This document shows, in pieces, positions 47,249 through 56,193 of a stretch of 64,000 nucleotides of DNA. The notes beneath the pieces are model-generated. The model was not told the origin of the DNA, ran no database searches, and saw only the letters and a program-made list of their open reading frames with translations. Numbering within the stretch: position 1 is the first letter of the stretch; the number at the start of each line of letters is the position of its first letter. The position numbers and the translations under genes were made by a program. Origin of the DNA: Phaeobacter piscinae (GTDB lineage Bacteria; Pseudomonadota; Alphaproteobacteria; Rhodobacterales; Rhodobacteraceae); contig NZ_CP010682.1 in assembly GCF_002407245.1 (NCBI RefSeq), positions 1 through 64,000 on the forward strand. Reading direction: 5' to 3'.

Positions 47249-47602
47249 GTCTTACCCCGATCTCCAACCTCGCGGTGTCAACGTGAATGTCGACAGGGTC
47301 GCTATTTGCTCTTGGTGGCTGCGACCTCATCCGCCTTTCCTAAGATTTGATTCAAATTCGTGGCAAGAATTTGTCTTAAACAGAGTATTGCTTGGGCGCT
47401 GTCTGATTGCCGGGGCTGCGTCGGAGGCCGGCGCGGCCGATGGAACGTGTGGCTGACTCCGACGCCGACATCTCTGATGCCCGCTGCTCAGCCACCTGTG
47501 TCGGCTGAATTGACAGCTCTGGTGTAACCTATTAATTTGATATTCGAAATAAATAGCCCACATCAGGACTGGTCGGGGTTCTGTAGCCAAGGACACCCAT
47601 TT
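47249..47602. promoter_or_regulatory. Promoter region between exoY-like and mutarotase genes
   Basis: About 350 bases between divergent genes. The only strong feature is an AT-rich dyad at 47532-47555 near the mutarotase start that resembles the one in front of xylF. A partly AT-rich stretch at 47330-47395 could hold the exoY promoter. Confidence 0.45.
47532..47555. promoter_or_regulatory. Candidate ROK operator upstream of the mutarotase gene
   Basis: TTAATTTGA followed by TAT and TCGAAATAAATA. The half TTAATTTGA is identical to the left arm of the xylF upstream dyad (52862-52870), and TTC.AAA follows at the same distance in both. It lies 48 bases upstream of the start codon. Confidence 0.6.
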
Positions 47603-48664
47603 ATGCCATCAGCCAGCCAGTCATCTATTGGAGCATCCTCTCCGCCGCACGCGCATCTGCCGGAGACTGCCGCTGATCATCTGCGATGGCTGGATCTGGA
47701 GACTGATCATCTGCGACTTCGGGTCCTCAACTTCGGCGCGGTCACGGCACGGCTGGACCTGCGCGTCGGCGACGTTTGGGTGCCGATGGTTCTGGGCTAT
47801 CATGATATGGTCTCCTATCTGGGGGACCCTTTCTATCTGGGCGCTATTGTTGGCCGGGTGGCCAATCGCGTTGGCGGCGCGGGTTTCGATCTGGCGGGGC
47901 GGCTGGTTGCACTGGATGCCAATGAGGGGGGCAATCAGCTGCATGGTGGGACGGCGGGTCTCGGGCGGGTGTTTTGGGAAATCCAGCAGGTGGCCGATGA
48001 TGCGGCGGAGCTGAGATATACCTCAGCTGATGGTGAGAATGGCTATCCCGGGTGCGCTGAATTCCTGCTGCGGATCACAGTGTCCGGCGCCAGTGTCAGC
48101 TATGATATGAGTGCCAGCGTTGATCAGACGACACCAATCAATCTGGCGCAGCACAATTACTATACGCTGGGTGTCACCGGCGACATTTGGGGGCATCGCC
48201 TCCGCTGTCCTGCGACCGCCTATCTTCCGCTTCGCCCGGACGGGGTGCCAACAGGCGCGATTGCGCCTGTCGCGGGGACCTCGTTGGATTTTACCCTTGG
48301 GCAGTCTTTTGCAGAGCTGGATCCACAGCGGCGCGGGACCGACACTCATGTCATCTTTGCCAAGGGTGCCGATAGCCATATGCCGGAGGTTGCGACGTTG
48401 ACTGCTCCAAACGGGGTCGCCATGCGGGTTTTTTCGGATCAGCCGGGTGCGCAGATCTATACCGCAACACATCTGAACAGCGCGGTGGCGGCACAGGGCG
48501 GGCAGCAGCTAGCACCCTTTGCCGCTGTCTGTATTGAGCCGCAGGGGTTCCCGGATGCGGTCAATCAACCTGATTTTCCAAGTGTTATGGTGCACCCAGG
48601 GCGGCCGTATCATCAGAGATTATCATTGAATTTCTCAACAAATGAGGCGGATCAGGATGACTGA
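47603..48664 (+). CDS. Aldose 1-epimerase (mutarotase)
   Basis: 353 aa galactose-mutarotase-family enzyme that interconverts alpha and beta sugar anomers. Family motifs: GAIVGRVANRVGGAGFDLAG, GNQLHGGTAGLGRVFWEIQ (His base) and INLAQHNYYTLGV (second catalytic His). The catalytic Glu lies in CIEPQGFPDAVN. ATG 47603 with AAGGAC upstream. A ROK-type operator shared with xylF precedes it, so it probably serves the sugar taken up by the xylose-type transporter. Its last 8 bases overlap the di-haem peroxidase gene. Confidence 0.88.
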   Translation: MPSASQSSIGASSPPHAHLPETAADHLRWLDLETDHLRLRVLNFGAVTARLDLRVGDVWVPMVLGYHDMVSYLGDPFYLGAIVGRVANRVGGAGFDLAGRLVALDANEGGNQLHGGTAGLGRVFWEIQQVADDAAELRYTSADGENGYPGCAEFLLRITVSGASVSYDMSASVDQTTPINLAQHNYYTLGVTGDIWGHRLRCPATAYLPLRPDGVPTGAIAPVAGTSLDFTLGQSFAELDPQRRGTDTHVIFAKGADSHMPEVATLTAPNGVAMRVFSDQPGAQIYTATHLNSAVAAQGGQQLAPFAAVCIEPQGFPDAVNQPDFPSVMVHPGRPYHQRLSLNFSTNEADQDD

Positions 48665-50009
48665 GTATTGGCGTCGGAACGGTCTTCTGGGGTGTGTTAT
48701 CGCTGGTCTGAGCCTTGTGGCCTATACCAACGCTGTCATCGCGGAGACCAAGCATCAGCCCTTGGATCTTGGACAACGTCCGAGTTTCGCGCTGATGGAT
48801 CAGGCACAGGTCGAGTTGGGGCAGTTGTTGTTCTACGATCCGATCCTGTCAGGCAATCGCAACATCAGCTGCGCCAGCTGTCATCATCCGCGGTTTGGCA
48901 CTGGTGATGGTGTGTCGCTGTCGTTGGGTGAAGGCGCCAACGGGCTGGGCCCCAAACGACAGGTGGATCCCGAAAACCTGCCGGAGCAACGCATCCCGCG
49001 CAATGCGCCCGCACTTTGGAACCTTGGCGCGCGCGGGATGGATGTGATGTTTCATGACGGTCGTCTGGAGGCAGATCCCGCCTACGGGTCAGGTATTCGG
49101 ACGCCGTTGGAGGGCGATATGCTGTCTGGGTTTGACTCGGCGCTGTCTGCCCAGGCGATGTTTCCGGTGCTTTCAGCAGATGAGATGGCGGGCCACTACG
49201 GCGAAAACGAGGTGTCCCGCGCGGTGCGTCTGGGTCAGTTGAGTCATCCGGGGGGCGCCTGGGATCTGGTCGCAGGTCGGGTGGCGGATATTCCGGAATA
49301 CAGGCAGCGGTTTGATCGCGTGCTAGGCGCTGGGGCTCCCATTCGGTTCACGGATATCGGCAATATGCTTGCCGCCTTTATCCGGTTTGAGTGGCGGGCC
49401 GATGACAGCCCGTTTGATCGTGCGCAGATGGAGGGAGAGCCGCTGCCACCCGTTGCGGCGCGGGGGCAGGGCTTGTTTTATGGCGCAGCAGGCTGCAGCC
49501 AATGCCATTCCGGCTGGTTGCAGACGGACAATGGGTTTCACGCAATCGCAATGCCACAACTCGGACCGGGAAAGGCGGCGCGGTTTGAAGCGCATGCCCG
49601 CGATGAAGGTCGGCTACGTGTCACCGGAACCCCTGATGATGCGTATAGGTTTCGCACCCCCTCGCTGCGGAATGTGGCGCTGACGGCCCCCTATGGGCAC
49701 AGCGGCGCCTATGCCACGCTGGAGGCGGTTGTGCGTCATCATCTGGACCCGCTGGACGCGTTGATGGCATATGACCGCAGTCAGGTGGTTCTGCCTGCAC
49801 TTCCGGGCGTGGTAGATTGGGCCGCATTGGATGATCCTGCGGAGGTGCAGCGTATCGCATCCGCCAATGATTTGGCGCCTGTTGCGCTGAGTGACGGTGA
49901 GATCGCCGATCTTGTTGCCTTTCTTGAGGCTCTGACCGATAGCACTGCGGCGGCGGGGCGGCTTGGCGTACCTGATACCGTGCCCTCAGGCCTGCCCGTG
50001 GAGCAGTAG
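48657..50009 (+). CDS. Di-haem cytochrome c peroxidase / MauG-family protein
   Basis: 450 aa. A signal-like hydrophobic segment at about 10-28 ends AVIAE, so the protein is periplasmic. Two c-type haem sites: C72-x-x-C-H76 (CASCHHP) and C280-x-x-C-H284 (CSQCHSG), the spacing of bacterial di-haem peroxidases and MauG. FRTPSLRNVALTAPYGHSGAYATL near the end is a family signature. It may reduce peroxide or oxidise a partner protein. The gene starts inside the mutarotase gene (ATG 48657; ATG 48642 also possible), so a sugar-responsive operon carries it. It converges with the FG-GAP/ASPIC gene, 12 bases apart. Confidence 0.85.
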   Translation: MTEYWRRNGLLGCVIAGLSLVAYTNAVIAETKHQPLDLGQRPSFALMDQAQVELGQLLFYDPILSGNRNISCASCHHPRFGTGDGVSLSLGEGANGLGPKRQVDPENLPEQRIPRNAPALWNLGARGMDVMFHDGRLEADPAYGSGIRTPLEGDMLSGFDSALSAQAMFPVLSADEMAGHYGENEVSRAVRLGQLSHPGGAWDLVAGRVADIPEYRQRFDRVLGAGAPIRFTDIGNMLAAFIRFEWRADDSPFDRAQMEGEPLPPVAARGQGLFYGAAGCSQCHSGWLQTDNGFHAIAMPQLGPGKAARFEAHARDEGRLRVTGTPDDAYRFRTPSLRNVALTAPYGHSGAYATLEAVVRHHLDPLDALMAYDRSQVVLPALPGVVDWAALDDPAEVQRIASANDLAPVALSDGEIADLVAFLEALTDSTAAAGRLGVPDTVPSGLPVEQ

Positions 50010-50021
50010 GCCCGGGCGGGG

Positions 50022-51578
50022 CTACTGGATCACTGTAATATGCTGGTTGGGTGGCACCGCCTGCCACTCGGTTGTCTCTCCATCCGGCCAGATCACACGC
50101 AATCGCAGGCCCTGCGCCTCTCCCAGGCCAAAATGTAGATCGCCGAAGGAACCGCCCGCGTGACCTCCACCAACCGTGATTTCGCGGGTATGGATCCGGG
50201 TTCCGGTGTCCAGCTCGACAAAGGCACCGATGGCTTGGGTGTTCGGCGCAGCGCCCCGCAACGACAGGGAGAGCCAGTTACCTGTGGCTTGAGTGGCGTT
50301 CTGATAGAGCTCCATCGGCGCGCGACGGTTGACCACGGCGAGGTCAAGGCGACCATCCAGATTGAAGTCACGCAGAACGGCGCCACGAGACCGGGCCATG
50401 CTGGCGATTTGTGCCGCTGCGGCGGCATCCGTAAATCGCCCGTCAACACCTTGGATCAAAAGCGTATTTGGGTCACGCATGGCGGCGTCTGGCATCTGTT
50501 CCACATTGCCTTTGGTCACGAAGATATCGTCACGTCCGTCGTTGTTCACATCACCGAAATCCGCATGCCATCCGGTGGAGGGTCGCCCGTCGCCGCCGCT
50601 GGTTGGACGGTGGGCGGTTGTTCCGTAGTCGTAGGTCACATCGCGGTAGGACGGGCCGATACCGGCCGGATCAAACAGCTGAAGTTTCTGATCCCCCATT
50701 GAGGTGAGATAGACATCAGAGAACCCATCGCCATTGAGATCGCGCGACGCGATACCCATGCCCCAGAGGTGATAGGGGGCCCAGCCGTCATCCTGCTGGT
50801 ATAGCACGGGCGGCGTGGTCATCTTCCACATCTGTTCCTGCCCGTCGCGGACGTAATAGTGCCGATCATTGCTGATGCGCAGGTCGGCGCGCCCCTGCGC
50901 AGGCCCGTCCGCGCGTCGGTGCCAGTTGGTGAACAGCATGGATAGGGCACAATAGCCGGGTTTGAGCCTGTTTGGCGGGCCATATCTGCTCCCCTCGGGG
51001 CGATAAAGCAGCGTGTCATCGCAGGCCTCAAAAGGACCATCCGGGTTGCTCCGGTCTACGTAGGTGCCGAAGGCCAGAGTGGGGAGTTGCGCCCCATTTT
51101 CCCATGTCGCGGAGAAGGCAGTGGTCCAGTGATCACCACTGGAAAATCCAAGATCATCAAATGGTTCGAACTGGCAGTCTCCGGTGCCACGCAGCAATTG
51201 GTCGGCGCCGACACGCAACAGGGCGAGATCCAGAATCCCGTCACCGTCAATATCCAGCGGATAGATGCCGGTGACCCCCGTTTGCGCCAAGGCTTCTGGC
51301 GTATCGGCGGTAAACTGCACATTTGCACCGGGGGTCTTGGTCCGATTCATCATCAACTGAACCGGGTTGCTGCCACCTGCGGCCACCAGATCGGGAAACC
51401 TGTCGCCGTTGCAATCCAGCGAAGCCAGCCCGCCGCCCACGAAATGCTCCCAGCCGCCATCATAGATATGCGCGGCGATCGGGCGTGGGGTGAAGACGGG
51501 CGGCTCAGATCCGTTGGCAAATGCAATCTGCGGCAGAAGGCACAGTGGCGCCAGAAGTAGACGGACCCTAACTGGCAT
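50022..51578 (-). CDS. FG-GAP/VCBS-repeat protein with ASPIC/UnbV domain (CRTAC1-like)
   Basis: 518 aa exported protein. Signal peptide about 1-22 (MPVRVRLLLAPLCLLPQIAF). Five or more FG-GAP-like calcium-binding repeats: DCNGDRFPDLV, DIDGDGILDLALL, DLNGDGFSDVYLT, DVNNDGRDDIFVT, DFNLDGRLDLAVV. The last 90 residues form an ASPIC/UnbV domain (GNWLSLSLRG, then ITVGGGHAGGSFGDLHFGLG). Predicted beta-propeller with an adhesive or enzyme-partner role; the family is poorly understood. The true start (51578) overlaps the ROK gene by 11 bases, so both are cotranscribed. Proteins of this type often sit beside di-haem peroxidases, as here. Confidence 0.8.
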   Translation of the reverse strand: MPVRVRLLLAPLCLLPQIAFANGSEPPVFTPRPIAAHIYDGGWEHFVGGGLASLDCNGDRFPDLVAAGGSNPVQLMMNRTKTPGANVQFTADTPEALAQTGVTGIYPLDIDGDGILDLALLRVGADQLLRGTGDCQFEPFDDLGFSSGDHWTTAFSATWENGAQLPTLAFGTYVDRSNPDGPFEACDDTLLYRPEGSRYGPPNRLKPGYCALSMLFTNWHRRADGPAQGRADLRISNDRHYYVRDGQEQMWKMTTPPVLYQQDDGWAPYHLWGMGIASRDLNGDGFSDVYLTSMGDQKLQLFDPAGIGPSYRDVTYDYGTTAHRPTSGGDGRPSTGWHADFGDVNNDGRDDIFVTKGNVEQMPDAAMRDPNTLLIQGVDGRFTDAAAAAQIASMARSRGAVLRDFNLDGRLDLAVVNRRAPMELYQNATQATGNWLSLSLRGAAPNTQAIGAFVELDTGTRIHTREITVGGGHAGGSFGDLHFGLGEAQGLRLRVIWPDGETTEWQAVPPNQHITVIQ

Positions 51579-52782
51579 GGCTTGCAACCTCGCGGATGGT
51601 GAGGGCCGAGACTTCTTCAATCGCATAGGCTGCGGCGCCTTTCGCCCACATCTGATTGCCCCAGCCATGCACGCGCACCTCTGGTAAGGGGCCATCCACC
51701 TGCACCACCCAGCGGCGCATTTCTTCGACCACTTTGTCGGAGGACAGGTATCCAAAGGCCAACTGCGCGCCGGCCAGGACGATCATCTGAGGGTCGAAGA
51801 TATTGACAATGTTTGCCAGACCCATGGCAAACATCCGTCCGGCGCGGTCGAGGATGGATTGTGCCATCATGTCGCCATCAGCCACCGCTGCATAAAGCGA
51901 AGCAAGATCTTTGTGCCGCTCGACTCCACTGGTGATATTTGCCTCGCGCAGCAGAGCATAGTCGCCAACATAGGCCTCCAGGCAGCCACGTTGCCCGCAT
52001 TGGCAGAGCGCGCCTTCCAGCTGCACCTTGATATGGCCGAACTCCGCACCGCAGCCACGCGCGCCGCGATAGATCTGGTTGTCAATAACGATGCCCATGC
52101 CGACCCCGTGCTCGACGGTGACAACGACAAAGTTGCTGCGGGTGTCGCCTTCGCCGAACAGATGCTCTGCTTTGGCGACCAGGTTGGCGTCATTGTCGAT
52201 GAACACCGGCATGCTGAGGTGCGACTTTAGCGCACTTCCGAGGTCAATGTTGCGCACATTGAGCGATGAGGACCAATAGATGAAGTTTCGCTCCGCATCC
52301 ATGACACCTGCCATGCCGATGCCGACGCCGGAGATCTGCGCGCGGGTCAGCCCACCTTTGGCGCAGCTTTGATCCAGCGCCTCGACAATTTTCTCGCACA
52401 GGGCATCCGGGGACATCTGACCGCCACGCAGGGGCATTTCGTGGCTGATCAATTCGGTGCCTTCGAAATCGGTGATCAGCGTGGTGATGGCGTGATGGGA
52501 CAGTTTTAACCCGGCGATATGATGTGCGCTGCCCCGAATTTTGAGGGCAACCCGTGGGCGGCCCCGTTTGGCACCGCGTGCGGTGTCGGGGCTGACCTCC
52601 TCGATCAATCCGGCAGCCAGCAGCTCAGCAGTGATTGCGGTGACAGTGGCCGGGCTGATCCGGGTGATCTGGGCAATATCGATTCGGGCGATCTGCCCGG
52701 CGGCGCGTATGGTATCAAATACCTGTAGGCGGCTGCTTTCGCGCAACTCGCCGGAATGTGAAAGCCTGTCCGATTTGACCAC
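51568..52782 (-). CDS. ROK-family sugar-responsive repressor (XylR/NagC type)
   Basis: 404 aa. N-terminal winged helix (about 18-75, ESSRLQVFDTIRAAGQIARI, RISPATVTAITAELLAAGLI); C-terminal ROK sugar-kinase-like domain with the zinc motif CQCGQRGCLEAYVG about residue 240. GVGIGMAGVMDAE and VEHGVGMGIV bind sugar in relatives. GTG start with AGGGGGA upstream. Divergent from xylF with a 33-base dyad in between, so it very likely represses the transporter until its sugar is present. The FG-GAP/ASPIC gene is downstream in the same transcript. Confidence 0.9.
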   Translation of the reverse strand: MVKSDRLSHSGELRESSRLQVFDTIRAAGQIARIDIAQITRISPATVTAITAELLAAGLIEEVSPDTARGAKRGRPRVALKIRGSAHHIAGLKLSHHAITTLITDFEGTELISHEMPLRGGQMSPDALCEKIVEALDQSCAKGGLTRAQISGVGIGMAGVMDAERNFIYWSSSLNVRNIDLGSALKSHLSMPVFIDNDANLVAKAEHLFGEGDTRSNFVVVTVEHGVGMGIVIDNQIYRGARGCGAEFGHIKVQLEGALCQCGQRGCLEAYVGDYALLREANITSGVERHKDLASLYAAVADGDMMAQSILDRAGRMFAMGLANIVNIFDPQMIVLAGAQLAFGYLSSDKVVEEMRRWVVQVDGPLPEVRVHGWGNQMWAKGAAAYAIEEVSALTIREVASHAS

Positions 52783-52855
52783 CGTATTTCCCCCTTATTG
52801 TCGGGCGGGTTATCGCAGGAAACGACCGACCGACAAGATATCCGAGCTCATGATA

Positions 52856-52888
52856 CATTATTTAATTTGAGTTTCAAAAAAAATAATG
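52856..52888. promoter_or_regulatory. ROK operator-like dyad between ROK gene and xylF
   Basis: 33-base dyad: left arm CATTATTTAATTTGA (52856-52870), centre GTT, right arm TCAAAAAAAATAATG (52874-52888); 13 of 15 arm positions are complementary. It lies between the divergent ROK and xylF genes, 81 bases before the xylF start, and shares TTAATTTGA..TTC.AAA with the mutarotase upstream site. Confidence 0.7.
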
Positions 52889-52968: not shown

Positions 52969-53994
52969 ATGAAATTCTTGAGTGGCGTATCCGCACTAGC
53001 TTTTGCCGCAACCGCGAGCATGGCCCTTGCCGAAGATGTGACCGTTGGCGTCAGCTGGTCGAACTTTCAGGAAGAACGCTGGAAAACCGACGAAGCCGCG
53101 ATCAAGGCCGCACTGGAAGCAAAAGGTGCAACCTATGTGTCTGCAGATGCGCAGTCATCTTCGGCAAAGCAGCTTTCTGACATCGAAAGCCTGATCGCAC
53201 AGGGCGTTGATGCGCTGATCGTACTGGCCCAGGATGCCCAGGCCATCGGCCCGGCCGTGCAGGCCGCCGCAGACGAGGGCATTCCTGTTGTTGCCTATGA
53301 CCGCCTGATCGAAGACGGCCGTGCGTTCTACCTGACCTTTGACAACGTCGAAGTGGGCCGGATGCAAGCGCGCGCCGTGCTGGAAGCGCAACCCAGCGGC
53401 AACTATGTGATGATCAAGGGCTCGCCCACCGATCCAAACGCCGACTTCCTGCGCGGTGGACAGCAGGAGATTATTCAGGCGGCAATTGACAGCGGTGATA
53501 TCAAAATCGTTGGTGAGGCCTATACCGATGGTTGGCTGCCGGCCAATGCACAGCGGAACATGGAGCAGATCCTGACCGCTAATGACAACAAGGTTGATGC
53601 GGTTGTCGCCTCCAATGATGGCACCGCCGGTGGTGTTGTCGCCGCGCTGACCGCGCAGGGCATGGAAGGCATCGCGGTTTCCGGTCAGGATGGGGATCAC
53701 GCTGCACTCAACCGTGTTGCTAAGGGCACGCAGACTGTATCTGTCTGGAAAGACGCCCGTGATCTGGGCAAGGCTGCGGCAAACATCGCGGTTGAAATGG
53801 CCGAAGGTGCTGCCATGGGTGATGTTGCGGGCGGCGCTGCCTGGACCTCCCCTGCGGGCACTGAGCTGACCGCTCGCTTCCTGGAACCGATCCCGGTAAC
53901 CGCCGACAACCTGTCGGTTGTTGTGGATGCTGGATGGATCACCAAAGAAGCGCTGTGCCAAGGTGTGACCAACGGCCCCGCGCCCTGCAACTAA
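52969..53994 (+). CDS. xylF: Xylose-type ABC transporter, periplasmic binding protein
   Basis: 341 aa ribose/xylose-family binding protein. Signal peptide about 1-21 (ends SMALAED). XylF features: [50 protein letters not shown] and [19 protein letters not shown], with a C-terminal cysteine pair as in XylF. GGGAGG ribosome site. Two ABC genes follow. A 9-bp stem-loop separates it from the permease gene. The operator-like dyad upstream predicts ROK control. Xylose is the likely ligand, but no xylA or xylB is in the window. Confidence 0.9.
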
Positions 53995-54112: not shown

Positions 54113-55414
54113 ATGACCGAAACCACGTCTCAGCCGATCCCCGAACACAGCAAGCGTGGCCTGTTCCAGCAATTGGAACTGGACGTCCGCCTATTGGGAA
54201 TGATCGGTGCCTTTGTCATCTTGTGCATTGGATTCAACATCCTGACGGATGGGCGTTTCCTGACGCCGCGCAATATCTTTAACCTGACCATTCAGACCGT
54301 GTCGGTGGCGATCATGGCCACGGGCATGGTGTTTGTGATCGTGACCCGTCACATTGACCTGAGTGTCGGCGCGCTGCTGGCGACCTGCTCGGCGGTGATG
54401 GCCGTGGTGCAGACGGATGTGCTGCCGGATATGTTGGGTCTTGGCCTCAACCATCCTGCCACCTGGATCATCACCGTCGCCGTGGGCCTCACCATTGGTA
54501 CGCTGATCGGTGCCTTTCAGGGGTGGATGGTGGGCTTTCTGACCATTCCGGCCTTTATTGTGACGCTGGGCGGATTTCTGGTCTGGCGCAATGTGGCCTG
54601 GTACCTGACCGATGGTCAGACGATTGGCCCGCTCGACAGCACCTTTCTGGTCTTTGGCGGCACCTCCGGCACATTGGGCACCACGCTGAGCTGGGCGGTT
54701 GGGATCGTTGCGACCGTTCTGGCGCTGGCCGCATTGTGGAACAGCCGCCGGGCCAAGCAAGGACATGGCTTCCCGGTGAAGCCAGCCTGGGCGGAAGCGG
54801 TGATCGCCGGTACTGTTGCCGCGTCCATCCTTGGTTTTGTTGCCGTCCTCAATGCCTATCAAATCCCCGCCCGCCGTCTGAAGCGGATGATGGAGGCGCA
54901 GGGAGAAACCATGCCCGAGGGGCTGGTCGTTGGCTATGGTCTGCCGATTTCGGTATTGATCCTGATTGCTACCGCTGTGGTGATGACAATTATCGCCCGC
55001 CGGACGCGTCTGGGGCGGTATATCTTTGCGACTGGCGGCAACCCTGATGCGGCTGAGCTGTCTGGCATCAACACGCGGCTTCTGACGGTGAAGATTTTCG
55101 CCCTCATGGGGTTCCTCTGTGCGCTATCTGCTGTTGTGGCGTCGGCGCGACTGGCGAACCACTCAAATGATATCGGCACCTTGGATGAACTGCGCGTCAT
55201 TGCGGCGGCAGTCATCGGCGGCACGGCCCTGTCTGGCGGCTTTGGCACGATTTACGGTGCGATCCTTGGCGCGTTGATCATGCAGAGTCTGCAATCGGGT
55301 ATGGCCATGGTTGGTGTCGATGCACCGTTTCAGAATATCGTTGTCGGCACAGTGCTGGTCGCGGCAGTCTGGATTGATATCTTGTACCGTAAACGTGTGG
55401 GGGCCCGGATATGA
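54113..55414 (+). CDS. xylH: Xylose-type ABC transporter permease
   Basis: 433 aa, about ten hydrophobic helices, longer than ribose-type permeases and fitting Xyl[20 protein letters not shown] and [21 protein letters not shown] in the first half, and [20 protein letters not shown] with [20 protein letters not shown] in the second, are typical family motifs. The segment about 205-265 is unusually hydrophilic ([16 protein letters not shown]). Overlaps xylG by 4 bases. Confidence 0.9.
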
Positions 55415-56193
55415 GCACCGCAAAAGAGCTGCGCGCCGCAGGCGCCACCCCGCTGGTCGAGATGAAGGATATTTCGATCTCCTTCGGCGGCATCAAAGCC
55501 GTGGACCACGTCAGCGTCGACCTTTACCCGGGTGAGGTTGTCGGATTGCTGGGCCACAACGGTGCCGGGAAATCCACCCTGATCAAGGTGTTGTCCGGCG
55601 CTTACCAGATGGACGCCGGTGAAATCCGGGTCAATGGCGACAGGGTTGAGATCACCAATCCGCGGGATGCGCGGTCGCATAATATCGAGACGATCTATCA
55701 GACGCTGGCGCTGGCGGATAACCTTGATGCGGCCTCAAACCTGTTTCTGGGGCGTGAGCTGGTGACTCCGTTTGGATTGGTCGACGACTCCGCAATGGAG
55801 GCCGAGTGCCGCAAAATCATGAACCGGTTGAACCCGAATTTCCAGAAGTTCTCAGAACCGGTGTCGGCGCTTTCCGGTGGCCAACGCCAGTCGGTGGCCA
55901 TTGCAAGGGCGGTGTATTTCAACGCCAAAATCCTGATCATGGATGAGCCGACCGCAGCCCTTGGTCCACATGAGACGCAGATGGTGGCAGAGCTGATCCA
56001 GCAGCTGAAGGCACAGGGGATCGGGATTTTCCTGATCGACCATGACGTCAATGCGGTGATGGAGCTGTGTGACCGTGCCTCTGTCATGAAGAATGGTCAG
56101 CTGGTCGGCACCGTTGATATTGACGATGTCACCGATGACGACCTGCTGAGTATGATTATTCTGGGTAAGCGGCCGGGAGAAGCGGCTGCCTGA
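55411..56193 (+). CDS. xylG: Xylose-type ABC transporter ATPase (single-domain)
   Basis: 260 aa. Walker [11 protein letters not shown]-loop-like [13 protein letters not shown], signature [16 protein letters not shown], Walker [14 protein letters not shown]-loop [10 protein letters not shown]. Enterobacterial XylG has two fused ATPase domains (about 500 aa); this is a half-length single-domain form, so two copies probably form the dimer, as commonly seen in Rhodobacteraceae. Starts within the xylH end. A terminator follows 21 bases after the stop. Confidence 0.9.

What the first reader, a model, noticed from the sequence alone, without database searches (positions are those of the whole stretch)
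47532..52888. One AT-rich dyad links xylF, the mutarotase and the di-haem peroxidase in a predicted ROK regulon
Seen: between the divergent ROK gene and xylF there is a 33-base dyad with 13 of 15 complementary arm positions (52856-52888). A matching site TTAATTTGA..TTC.AAA lies 48 bases before the mutarotase gene (47532-47555), 5 kb away. The mutarotase gene overlaps the di-haem peroxidase gene. Established: ROK repressors bind AT-rich dyads next to sugar operons. Inference: one repressor controls transporter, mutarotase and a redox protein.
Basis: partly seen in the sequence, partly recalled or inferred. Interest (0 to 1): 0.72.

Follow-up and report, generated by a model that had tools for sequence, protein, structure and literature searches.

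The report
Xylose repressor regulon with redox pair
A marine bacterium's sugar repressor very probably switches two neighbouring gene sets from matching DNA sites, one for taking up xylose or glucose and one carrying a sugar enzyme and a two-haem protein, and similar layouts recur in dozens of related genera together with an unstudied pair of apparently exported redox proteins.

Summary
Both sites are real and non-random. A matrix built only from relatives' xylF-upstream sites scores the mutarotase site 32.3 bits; 20 shuffled windows reach 8.0 at most. In 100 related loci the operator lies in 73 of 81 gaps upstream of a divergent xylF and heads 19 of 21 xylB-first operons, with hits elsewhere in two loci. 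With rok present, 73 of 77 xylF upstream regions carry it; without, 0 of 5.

In 12 of 100 loci the mutarotase follows xylA. Phaeobacter keeps xylAB elsewhere, so the operator fronts the mutarotase. This is an in silico XylR-type ROK regulon, a known kind.

The unusual part is a redox pair: a CRTAC1-like (ASPIC/FG-GAP) propeller protein encoded with rok, convergent with a di-haem peroxidase. Of 83 genomes with the close peroxidase, 79 have the propeller. The peroxidase family has His (69 of 71 rows) where bCCPs have Met and MauG Tyr.

Against: peroxidase-first operons carry the operator in only 1 of 44 loci; a plasmid lookalike scores 20.5 bits. Binding, inducer and function are untested.

The parts
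47511..47516 (+). TTGACA, probable -35 box of the mutarotase-peroxidase operon
   Evidence: invariant in 6 of 6 genus sequences aligned; promoter role inferred; the sigma-70 scan found none at its threshold
47530..47554 (+). ROK operator 2 (half-sites ATTAATTT / AAATAAAT with 8 bases between), overlapping the probable -10 region
   Evidence: PWM 32.3 bits, matrix made without it; conserved half-sites; palindromic pattern hit on both strands
47603..48664 (+). aldose 1-epimerase (mutarotase)
   Evidence: PF01263, 182.6 bits
48657..50009 (+). di-haem CCP/MauG-superfamily enzyme, two CxxCH, His362 at the sixth-ligand position; overlaps the mutarotase gene by 8 bases
   Evidence: PF03150; alignments
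50022..51578 (-). FG-GAP/ASPIC (CRTAC1-like) beta-propeller protein, apparently exported (leader read by eye); start overlaps the rok stop; convergent with the di-haem gene
51568..52782 (-). ROK-family repressor (predicted XylR-type)
   Evidence: PF00480, 185.9 bits, with N-terminal MarR/HTH models just under their cut-offs; PDB matches include Mlc and XylR
52850..52877 (-). probable rok-aspic promoter TTGAAA-16-TATCAT, its -35 inside operator 1
   Evidence: consensus scan, 10 of 12; shuffles give 0.4 such sites on average
52856..52888 (+). ROK operator 1 (33-base dyad; 25-base core 52860-52884) between rok and xylF
   Evidence: all 25 core positions invariant in 7 of 7 genus sequences; 73 of 81 relatives' gaps hit
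52969..53994 (+). xylF, D-xylose ABC transporter substrate-binding protein
   Evidence: TIGR02634, 480.6 bits, above cut-off 389.55
54113..55414 (+). xylH, sugar ABC transporter permease
   Evidence: PF02653
55411..56193 (+). xylG-type short (260 aa) ABC ATPase
   Evidence: PF00005; TIGR02633 196.0 bits, below its cut-off for the 500-aa form

Best explanation
The ROK protein is a local XylR-type repressor with one operator type, about 25 bp (ATTTAATTT-N8-AAATAAAT-like). Operator 1 lies between the divergent rok and xylF genes over probable promoter elements of both, so bound repressor should shut off xylFHG and its own rok-aspic operon. Operator 2 lies over the probable promoter of the mutarotase-peroxidase operon. 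Sugar (xylose, possibly glucose) would bind the ROK domain and release DNA. The regulon looks ancestral: relatives have longer xylB-xylA-mutarotase-peroxidase operons behind operator 2. In Phaeobacter the catabolic genes sit elsewhere and the mutarotase has become first. The co-encoded redox pair (CRTAC1-like propeller plus di-haem peroxidase) is an apparently exported module that travels with the sugar locus and most likely does peroxide-linked chemistry in the periplasm. Shown: sites, conservation, dependence on rok presence, gene order. Inferred: binding, repression, inducer, export and function of the redox pair.
For: Independent PWM hit on the mutarotase site. 73 of 81 divergent xylF gaps, 19 of 21 xylB-first and 2 of 2 xylA-first operons carry the site, two loci have hits elsewhere in 1.285 Mb, 0 of 1620 shuffled gaps reach the threshold; none of the 81 gaps contains a training 25-mer. 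73 of 77 with rok against 0 of 5 without. Footprints in the genus. ROK domain; N197, H250, three Cys and E269 in 79 of 79 and D198, E247 in 78 of 79 ROK rows. xylF equivalog. R. pomeroyi mutant screens assign xylFGH glucose and xylose (PMC10130141, passages). rok directly upstream of ASPIC on the same strand in 72 of 78 loci with rok; redox pair co-occurrence 79 of 83 and convergent adjacency 59 of 70.
Against: No binding or expression data. 4 of 77 rok-bearing loci score under 14 (L151 9.9, L197 11.9, L198 13.2, L234 9.3). 43 of 44 loci with the peroxidase gene first have no operator in front of it; the one that does (L167) has it between the peroxidase and a divergent xylB, so ROK control of the peroxidase is lineage-specific. 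In this genome xylAB is outside the predicted regulon. A lookalike on a small contig scores 20.5 bits near an Eco57I-type methylase gene, so the matrix is not perfectly specific or the regulon has an odd extra member. The rok-absent group is only 5 loci, two of them with a distant (49%) xylF, and loci are related by descent, so Fisher p (4.6e-6) overstates independence.
Confidence: 0.82

Rival explanations
1. The AT-rich repeats are conserved promoter elements, or sites of another AT-preferring regulator, and not ROK operators.
For: They overlap probable -35 and -10 boxes: TTGACA is invariant before operator 2 and TTGAAA-16-TATCAT lies in operator 1. Many DNA-binding proteins prefer AT-rich dyads (recalled).
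Against: A palindromic two-half-site pattern; absent upstream of xylF in all 5 loci without rok, present in 73 of 77 with it; hits elsewhere in only two loci in 1.285 Mb.
Confidence: 0.1
2. ROK controls only xylFHG and itself; the mutarotase site is a chance or decayed copy.
For: Operator 2 scores lower than operator 1 in all 6 genus genomes where both are held (22.8-32.3 against 41.5), and its middle varies.
Against: Half-sites conserved while flanks diverge (15 of 25 against 27 of 180 invariant); same position in 21 of 23 longer operons headed by xylB or xylA.
Confidence: 0.06
3. Function of the redox pair: the di-haem enzyme is a MauG-type maturase that oxidises residues of the propeller protein.
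For: Phylogenetic co-occurrence (79 of 83); many invariant Trp and Tyr in the propeller (W43, W151, W272, W337, Y173, Y241, Y242); superfamily precedent (MauG).
Against: His in place of the axial Tyr in 69 of 71; Y-to-H changes in BthA and MauG abolish the bis-Fe(IV) signal while BthA Y463H keeps peroxidase activity (PMC6405878, passages). The same aromatic residues are kept in 8 to 10 of 10 propeller homologues with no di-haem gene nearby (10 chosen of 30 such loci).
Confidence: 0.1
4. Function of the redox pair: the di-haem enzyme is an ordinary periplasmic H2O2 peroxidase and the neighbourhood is historical.
For: Conserved E176, taken as the distal Glu, in 71 of 71; both CxxCH conserved; peroxidase-type relatives in the PDB.
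Against: Frequent convergent linkage to the propeller and xyl genes in dozens of genera; Met-His ligation typical of bCCP not met.
Confidence: 0.35

Closest known systems
XylR (ROK) regulons of Firmicutes and Thermotoga
   Same: ROK repressor, HTH plus sugar-kinase-like domain, predicted autoregulation, controls xylFGH/xylA/xylB from inverted repeats; clostridial XylR uses a 25-bp AT-rich inverted repeat, validated by EMSA (PMC2873477, passages). Thermotoga XylR responds to xylose and, in vitro, glucose (PMC3750489, passages).
   Different: Different motif; this regulon includes a mutarotase and an apparently exported redox pair; in this genome xylAB is outside it.
Ruegeria pomeroyi xylFGH (SPO0861-0863)
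   Same: A marine Rhodobacteraceae xylFGH; mutant screens assign it glucose and xylose (PMC10130141, passages).
   Different: That paper's main text has no hit for ROK; I did not inspect its neighbouring genes.
Bacterial di-haem peroxidase (bCCP), MauG, BthA
   Same: PF03150 superfamily, two CxxCH, conserved Glu taken as the distal Glu.
   Different: His at the sixth-ligand position instead of Met (bCCP) or Tyr (MauG, BthA; ligands from PMC6405878). His in FHDGR (65 of 71) where a PDB bCCP reads FWDGR; that alignment piece is not significant by score.
CRTAC1 (cartilage acidic protein 1) / ASPIC-UnbV proteins

Membership tests
XylR-type ROK repressor | N-terminal HTH plus ROK domain | tested here: met
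   PF00480 185.9 bits; three HTH models at 18-69, each just under its curated cut-off; aligned over residues 2-341 to full-length Mlc
XylR-type ROK repressor | Zinc motif CxCGxxGCxE and sugar-contact residues (roles recalled) | tested here: met
   C260, C262, C267, E269, N197 and H250 in 79 of 79; D198 and E247 in 78 of 79
XylR-type ROK repressor | Conserved inverted repeat upstream of xylose transport or catabolic operons and of its own gene | tested here: met
   73 of 81 and 21 of 23; the site lies between rok and xylF; occupancy by the protein not tested
XylR-type ROK repressor | Binds the operator and is released by xylose | not testable with these tools
   needs EMSA
bCCP (Met-His di-haem peroxidase) | Met as axial ligand of the six-coordinate haem | tested here: not met
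   column 362 is His in 69 of 71, Met in 1, gap in 1; aligns to Met of 3o5c
bCCP (Met-His di-haem peroxidase) | Two CxxCH and distal Glu | tested here: met
   C280, C283, H284 and E176 in 71 of 71; C72, C75, H76 in at least 97% of 71 rows; that E176 is the distal Glu is my reading
MauG | Tyr as axial ligand | tested here: not met
   His362 aligns with the residue that is Tyr in wild-type and His in the best-matching MauG chain, 3orv; numbering Tyr294 and the Y294H variant from PMC6405878 and recall
MauG | TTQ_mauG equivalog cut-off | tested here: not met
   TIGR03791 110.3 bits against 443.85
His-Xaa-Ser system MauG-like (TIGR03981) | equivalog cut-off | tested here: not met
   243.5 bits against 340
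CRTAC1 / ASPIC-UnbV family | FG-GAP repeats plus ASPIC domain on a beta-propeller | tested here: met
D-xylose-binding protein XylF | TIGR02634 cut-off | tested here: met
   480.6 against 389.55
GalM (galactose-1-epimerase) | TIGR02636 cut-off | tested here: not met
   195.3 against 397.65; Pfam Aldose_epim is met

The most novel reading that the evidence does not exclude
The sugar locus encodes an uncharacterised periplasmic redox system: a His/His-ligated di-haem enzyme, a class apart from bCCP and MauG, that works on or with a CRTAC1-like beta-propeller. Together they modify or oxidise sugars (or a protein that does) with peroxide before uptake, induced by the same ROK repressor as the transporter. 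Other homologues of the propeller (about half identical) instead follow a PAP2-superfamily gene (5 of 5 tested, three with a weak vanadium chloroperoxidase signal), as if the propeller partners alternative peroxide enzymes.
Probability: 0.15. Interest if true: 0.8.

Novelty: new variant of a known kind. Interest (0 to 1): 0.5.

Why it matters
It gives a testable operator and regulon for sugar uptake across a large marine family. It also draws attention to a propeller/di-haem pair kept beside xyl genes in dozens of genera; the listings of my literature searches on the pair showed no paper about it. If the pair acts on sugars or on a partner protein, it would be a new periplasmic step in sugar use.

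Tried and rejected
Pattern with five Ns between the halves: my error, no hits; redone with two.

Third lookalike on a 23.7 kb contig (C6:2094, 2 mismatches): it lies inside a listed 1119-aa ORF, about 185 bases after its first start codon, whose product matches Eco57I/N6-methylase models. I first took it for chance, but it scores 20.5 bits with the matrix, so I leave it open.

Relaxed half-site pattern in the own genome: 12 forward and 9 reverse matches against 5 and 1 for the reversed control. Besides the two sites, the nine other places give best scores of 13.4 or less in the stretches fetched around them (L101-L103, L105-L108, L110, L111). The genome was not scanned with the matrix itself.

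Scan of 61 relatives with the strict pattern: 46 had a match at up to 2 mismatches, but control counts were of similar size in many genomes, the match-rich ones above all; not used. The 20 kb around own xylAB has no PWM hit of 9 or more. The di-haem AlphaFold model was poor (pLDDT 59.5) and was not used. The idea that the mutarotase is an odd lone target was dropped after relatives showed xyl genes ahead of it. A MauG-like maturase as the leading idea was lowered by His362. In the PDB second look a family not listed is not excluded.

Rows and thresholds: of 111 ASPIC-positive genomes (198 searched), 8 with under 75 bits were dropped; of the other 103, two were of the own genus and one (G147) was missed, leaving 100 loci. 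Loci are short stretches (3-14 kb), some cut by contig ends, so gene counts are lower bounds. The 14-bit PWM and 440-bit di-haem thresholds were set after seeing the lists. In one search, 20 of 21 operon-head rows were kept for the consensus.
Full report
What was checked. Both sequence features exist at the stated places. The 33-base dyad at 52856-52888 has 13 of 15 paired arm positions, and the second site starts at 47532. The mutarotase ATG is at 47603, and its stop overlaps the di-haem gene start by 8 bases. The strict shared pattern has only these two exact matches in the 4.13 Mb genome, but it was read off these two sites, so I built an independent test.

Independent test. A position weight matrix was made from 10 xylF-upstream sites of relatives found with the ROK protein (gaps shown in 15, matrix in 18). 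None of its members is a mutarotase-upstream site. It scores the window's mutarotase site at 32.3 bits; the next unrelated place in the window scores 12.7 and the best of 20 shuffled windows 8.0. The window's xylF site (41.5) is not independent, because one training site is identical. The whole genome was not scanned with the matrix. Among places that looser patterns picked out, one (C6:2094, a 23.7 kb contig, near an Eco57I-type methylase gene) scores 20.5 and is unexplained; the nine other places outside the two sites score 13.4 or less.

Wide test. The ASPIC/FG-GAP protein encoded after rok was searched in 198 genomes of the family, from 197 genera: 111 matched. 100 loci were taken. Of these, 82 hold xylF, 78 rok, 70 the di-haem gene, 64 xylB, 27 xylA and 16 a recognisable mutarotase (lower bounds, because stretches are short). 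Of 81 gaps upstream of a divergent xylF, 73 hold a site of 14 bits or more, and none of 1620 shuffled gaps does; no gap contains a training 25-mer. The operon that converges on ASPIC carries the site within about 300 bases of its first recognised gene in 19 of 21 cases when that is xylB, 2 of 2 when xylA, and 1 of 44 when the di-haem gene; that one (L167) lies between the di-haem gene and a divergent xylB. Two loci have a hit elsewhere in 1,285,343 bases; one of these (L240) is upstream of rok on a short contig where xylF is missing. Sorted by the regulator, 73 of 77 xylF upstream regions carry the site when rok is in the locus and 0 of 5 when it is not; two of those five have a distant xylF (49%). 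The loci are related by descent, so the counts are not independent events.

Close relatives. In the six genus sequences whose mutarotase upstream region is held, TTGACAG and two half-sites (TTAATTT, AAATAAAT) are invariant while the 8 bases between them and most of the flanks vary (15 of 25 against 27 of 180 invariant columns). In seven xylF gaps all 25 operator positions are invariant, against 37 of 145 in the flanks.

Anatomy and mechanism. rok and the ASPIC gene overlap and form one minus-strand unit; mutarotase and di-haem genes overlap and form one plus-strand unit; the two units converge. Operator 1 covers a probable rok -35 (TTGAAA-16-TATCAT) and lies over the probable xylF promoter. 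Operator 2 lies just after an invariant TTGACA, so bound repressor should cover the -10 region (inference). The ROK protein has the ROK domain and weak HTH matches, aligns along most of its length with Mlc, and keeps the zinc cysteines in 79 of 79 rows and the putative sugar contacts in 78 or 79 of 79 (roles recalled). The transporter passes the XylF cut-off, and Ruegeria pomeroyi mutant screens assign xylFGH both glucose and xylose (PMC10130141, passages), so either sugar could be the inducer.

Evolution. In 12 of the 100 loci the mutarotase lies next to xylA in one operon, as in L006, where the operator precedes xylB. In the window's genome xylA (over its equivalog cut-off) and an FGGY kinase gene are on another contig, C1, next to a LacI-family gene, with no PWM hit of 9 or more in 20 kb. 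The simplest reading is that the operon behind operator 2 lost its first genes in the Phaeobacter lineage and the mutarotase moved up; no tree was built to test this. The window locus is 98.4% identical to plasmids of about 221 kb of Phaeobacter piscinae.

Literature. The listings of searches (and of 26 and 32, capped at 20 of 81 and 20 of 216) showed no paper describing this ROK regulon in Rhodobacteraceae; 27 (no paper), 48 (20 of 53 listed) and 87 (3) showed none on the pair. I saw passages of five papers only (PMC10130141, PMC6405878, PMC4052901, PMC2873477, PMC3750489). The library lacks most subscription papers, and Wiegmann et al. 2014 on P. inhibens carbohydrate use was not held. RegPrecise may list a related regulog; I could not check.

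Verdict. The regulon is a well-supported prediction and in itself a new member of the XylR/ROK kind; the co-inherited redox pair makes it a variant. Control of the di-haem gene by ROK is predicted in the window's lineage and in loci with the longer operon, not everywhere.

Noticed in passing
G000:C6:2094-2111 (L046, L003): A third operator-like site in the genome, 20.5 bits, near the start of an Eco57I/N6-methylase-type gene on a 23.7 kb contig. Chance or an odd regulon member: unresolved.
   Followed up: partly
G000:C1:1315414-1316736 (L242:6415-7746): A second di-haem CCP/MauG paralogue (50% identity) lies between a TRAP transporter gene and a mannitol-dehydrogenase plus ABC transporter operon, again beside sugar/polyol genes.
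   Followed up: partly
L214, L216, L219, L223, L230: ASPIC homologues without a di-haem neighbour directly follow a PAP2-superfamily gene, three of five with a weak vanadium chloroperoxidase signal.
   Followed up: partly
window 55411-56193: The xylG-type ATPase is 260 aa, about half of the usual two-domain XylG; matches of this length recur in relatives.
   Followed up: no
whole window (contig C2): The locus sits on a replicon matching Phaeobacter plasmids of about 205-268 kb in the 20 rows listed; 57 of 61 plasmid records with a match are Phaeobacter.
   Followed up: no
L093:7707-8768 (G000:C1): Own xylAB are preceded by a LacI-family regulator gene, so transport and catabolism of xylose may answer to different regulators in this genome.
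   Followed up: partly
L235, L236, L237: In three distant loci the ASPIC gene, not rok, is next to xylF and rok lies further on in the same direction, yet the operator is still present.
   Followed up: no
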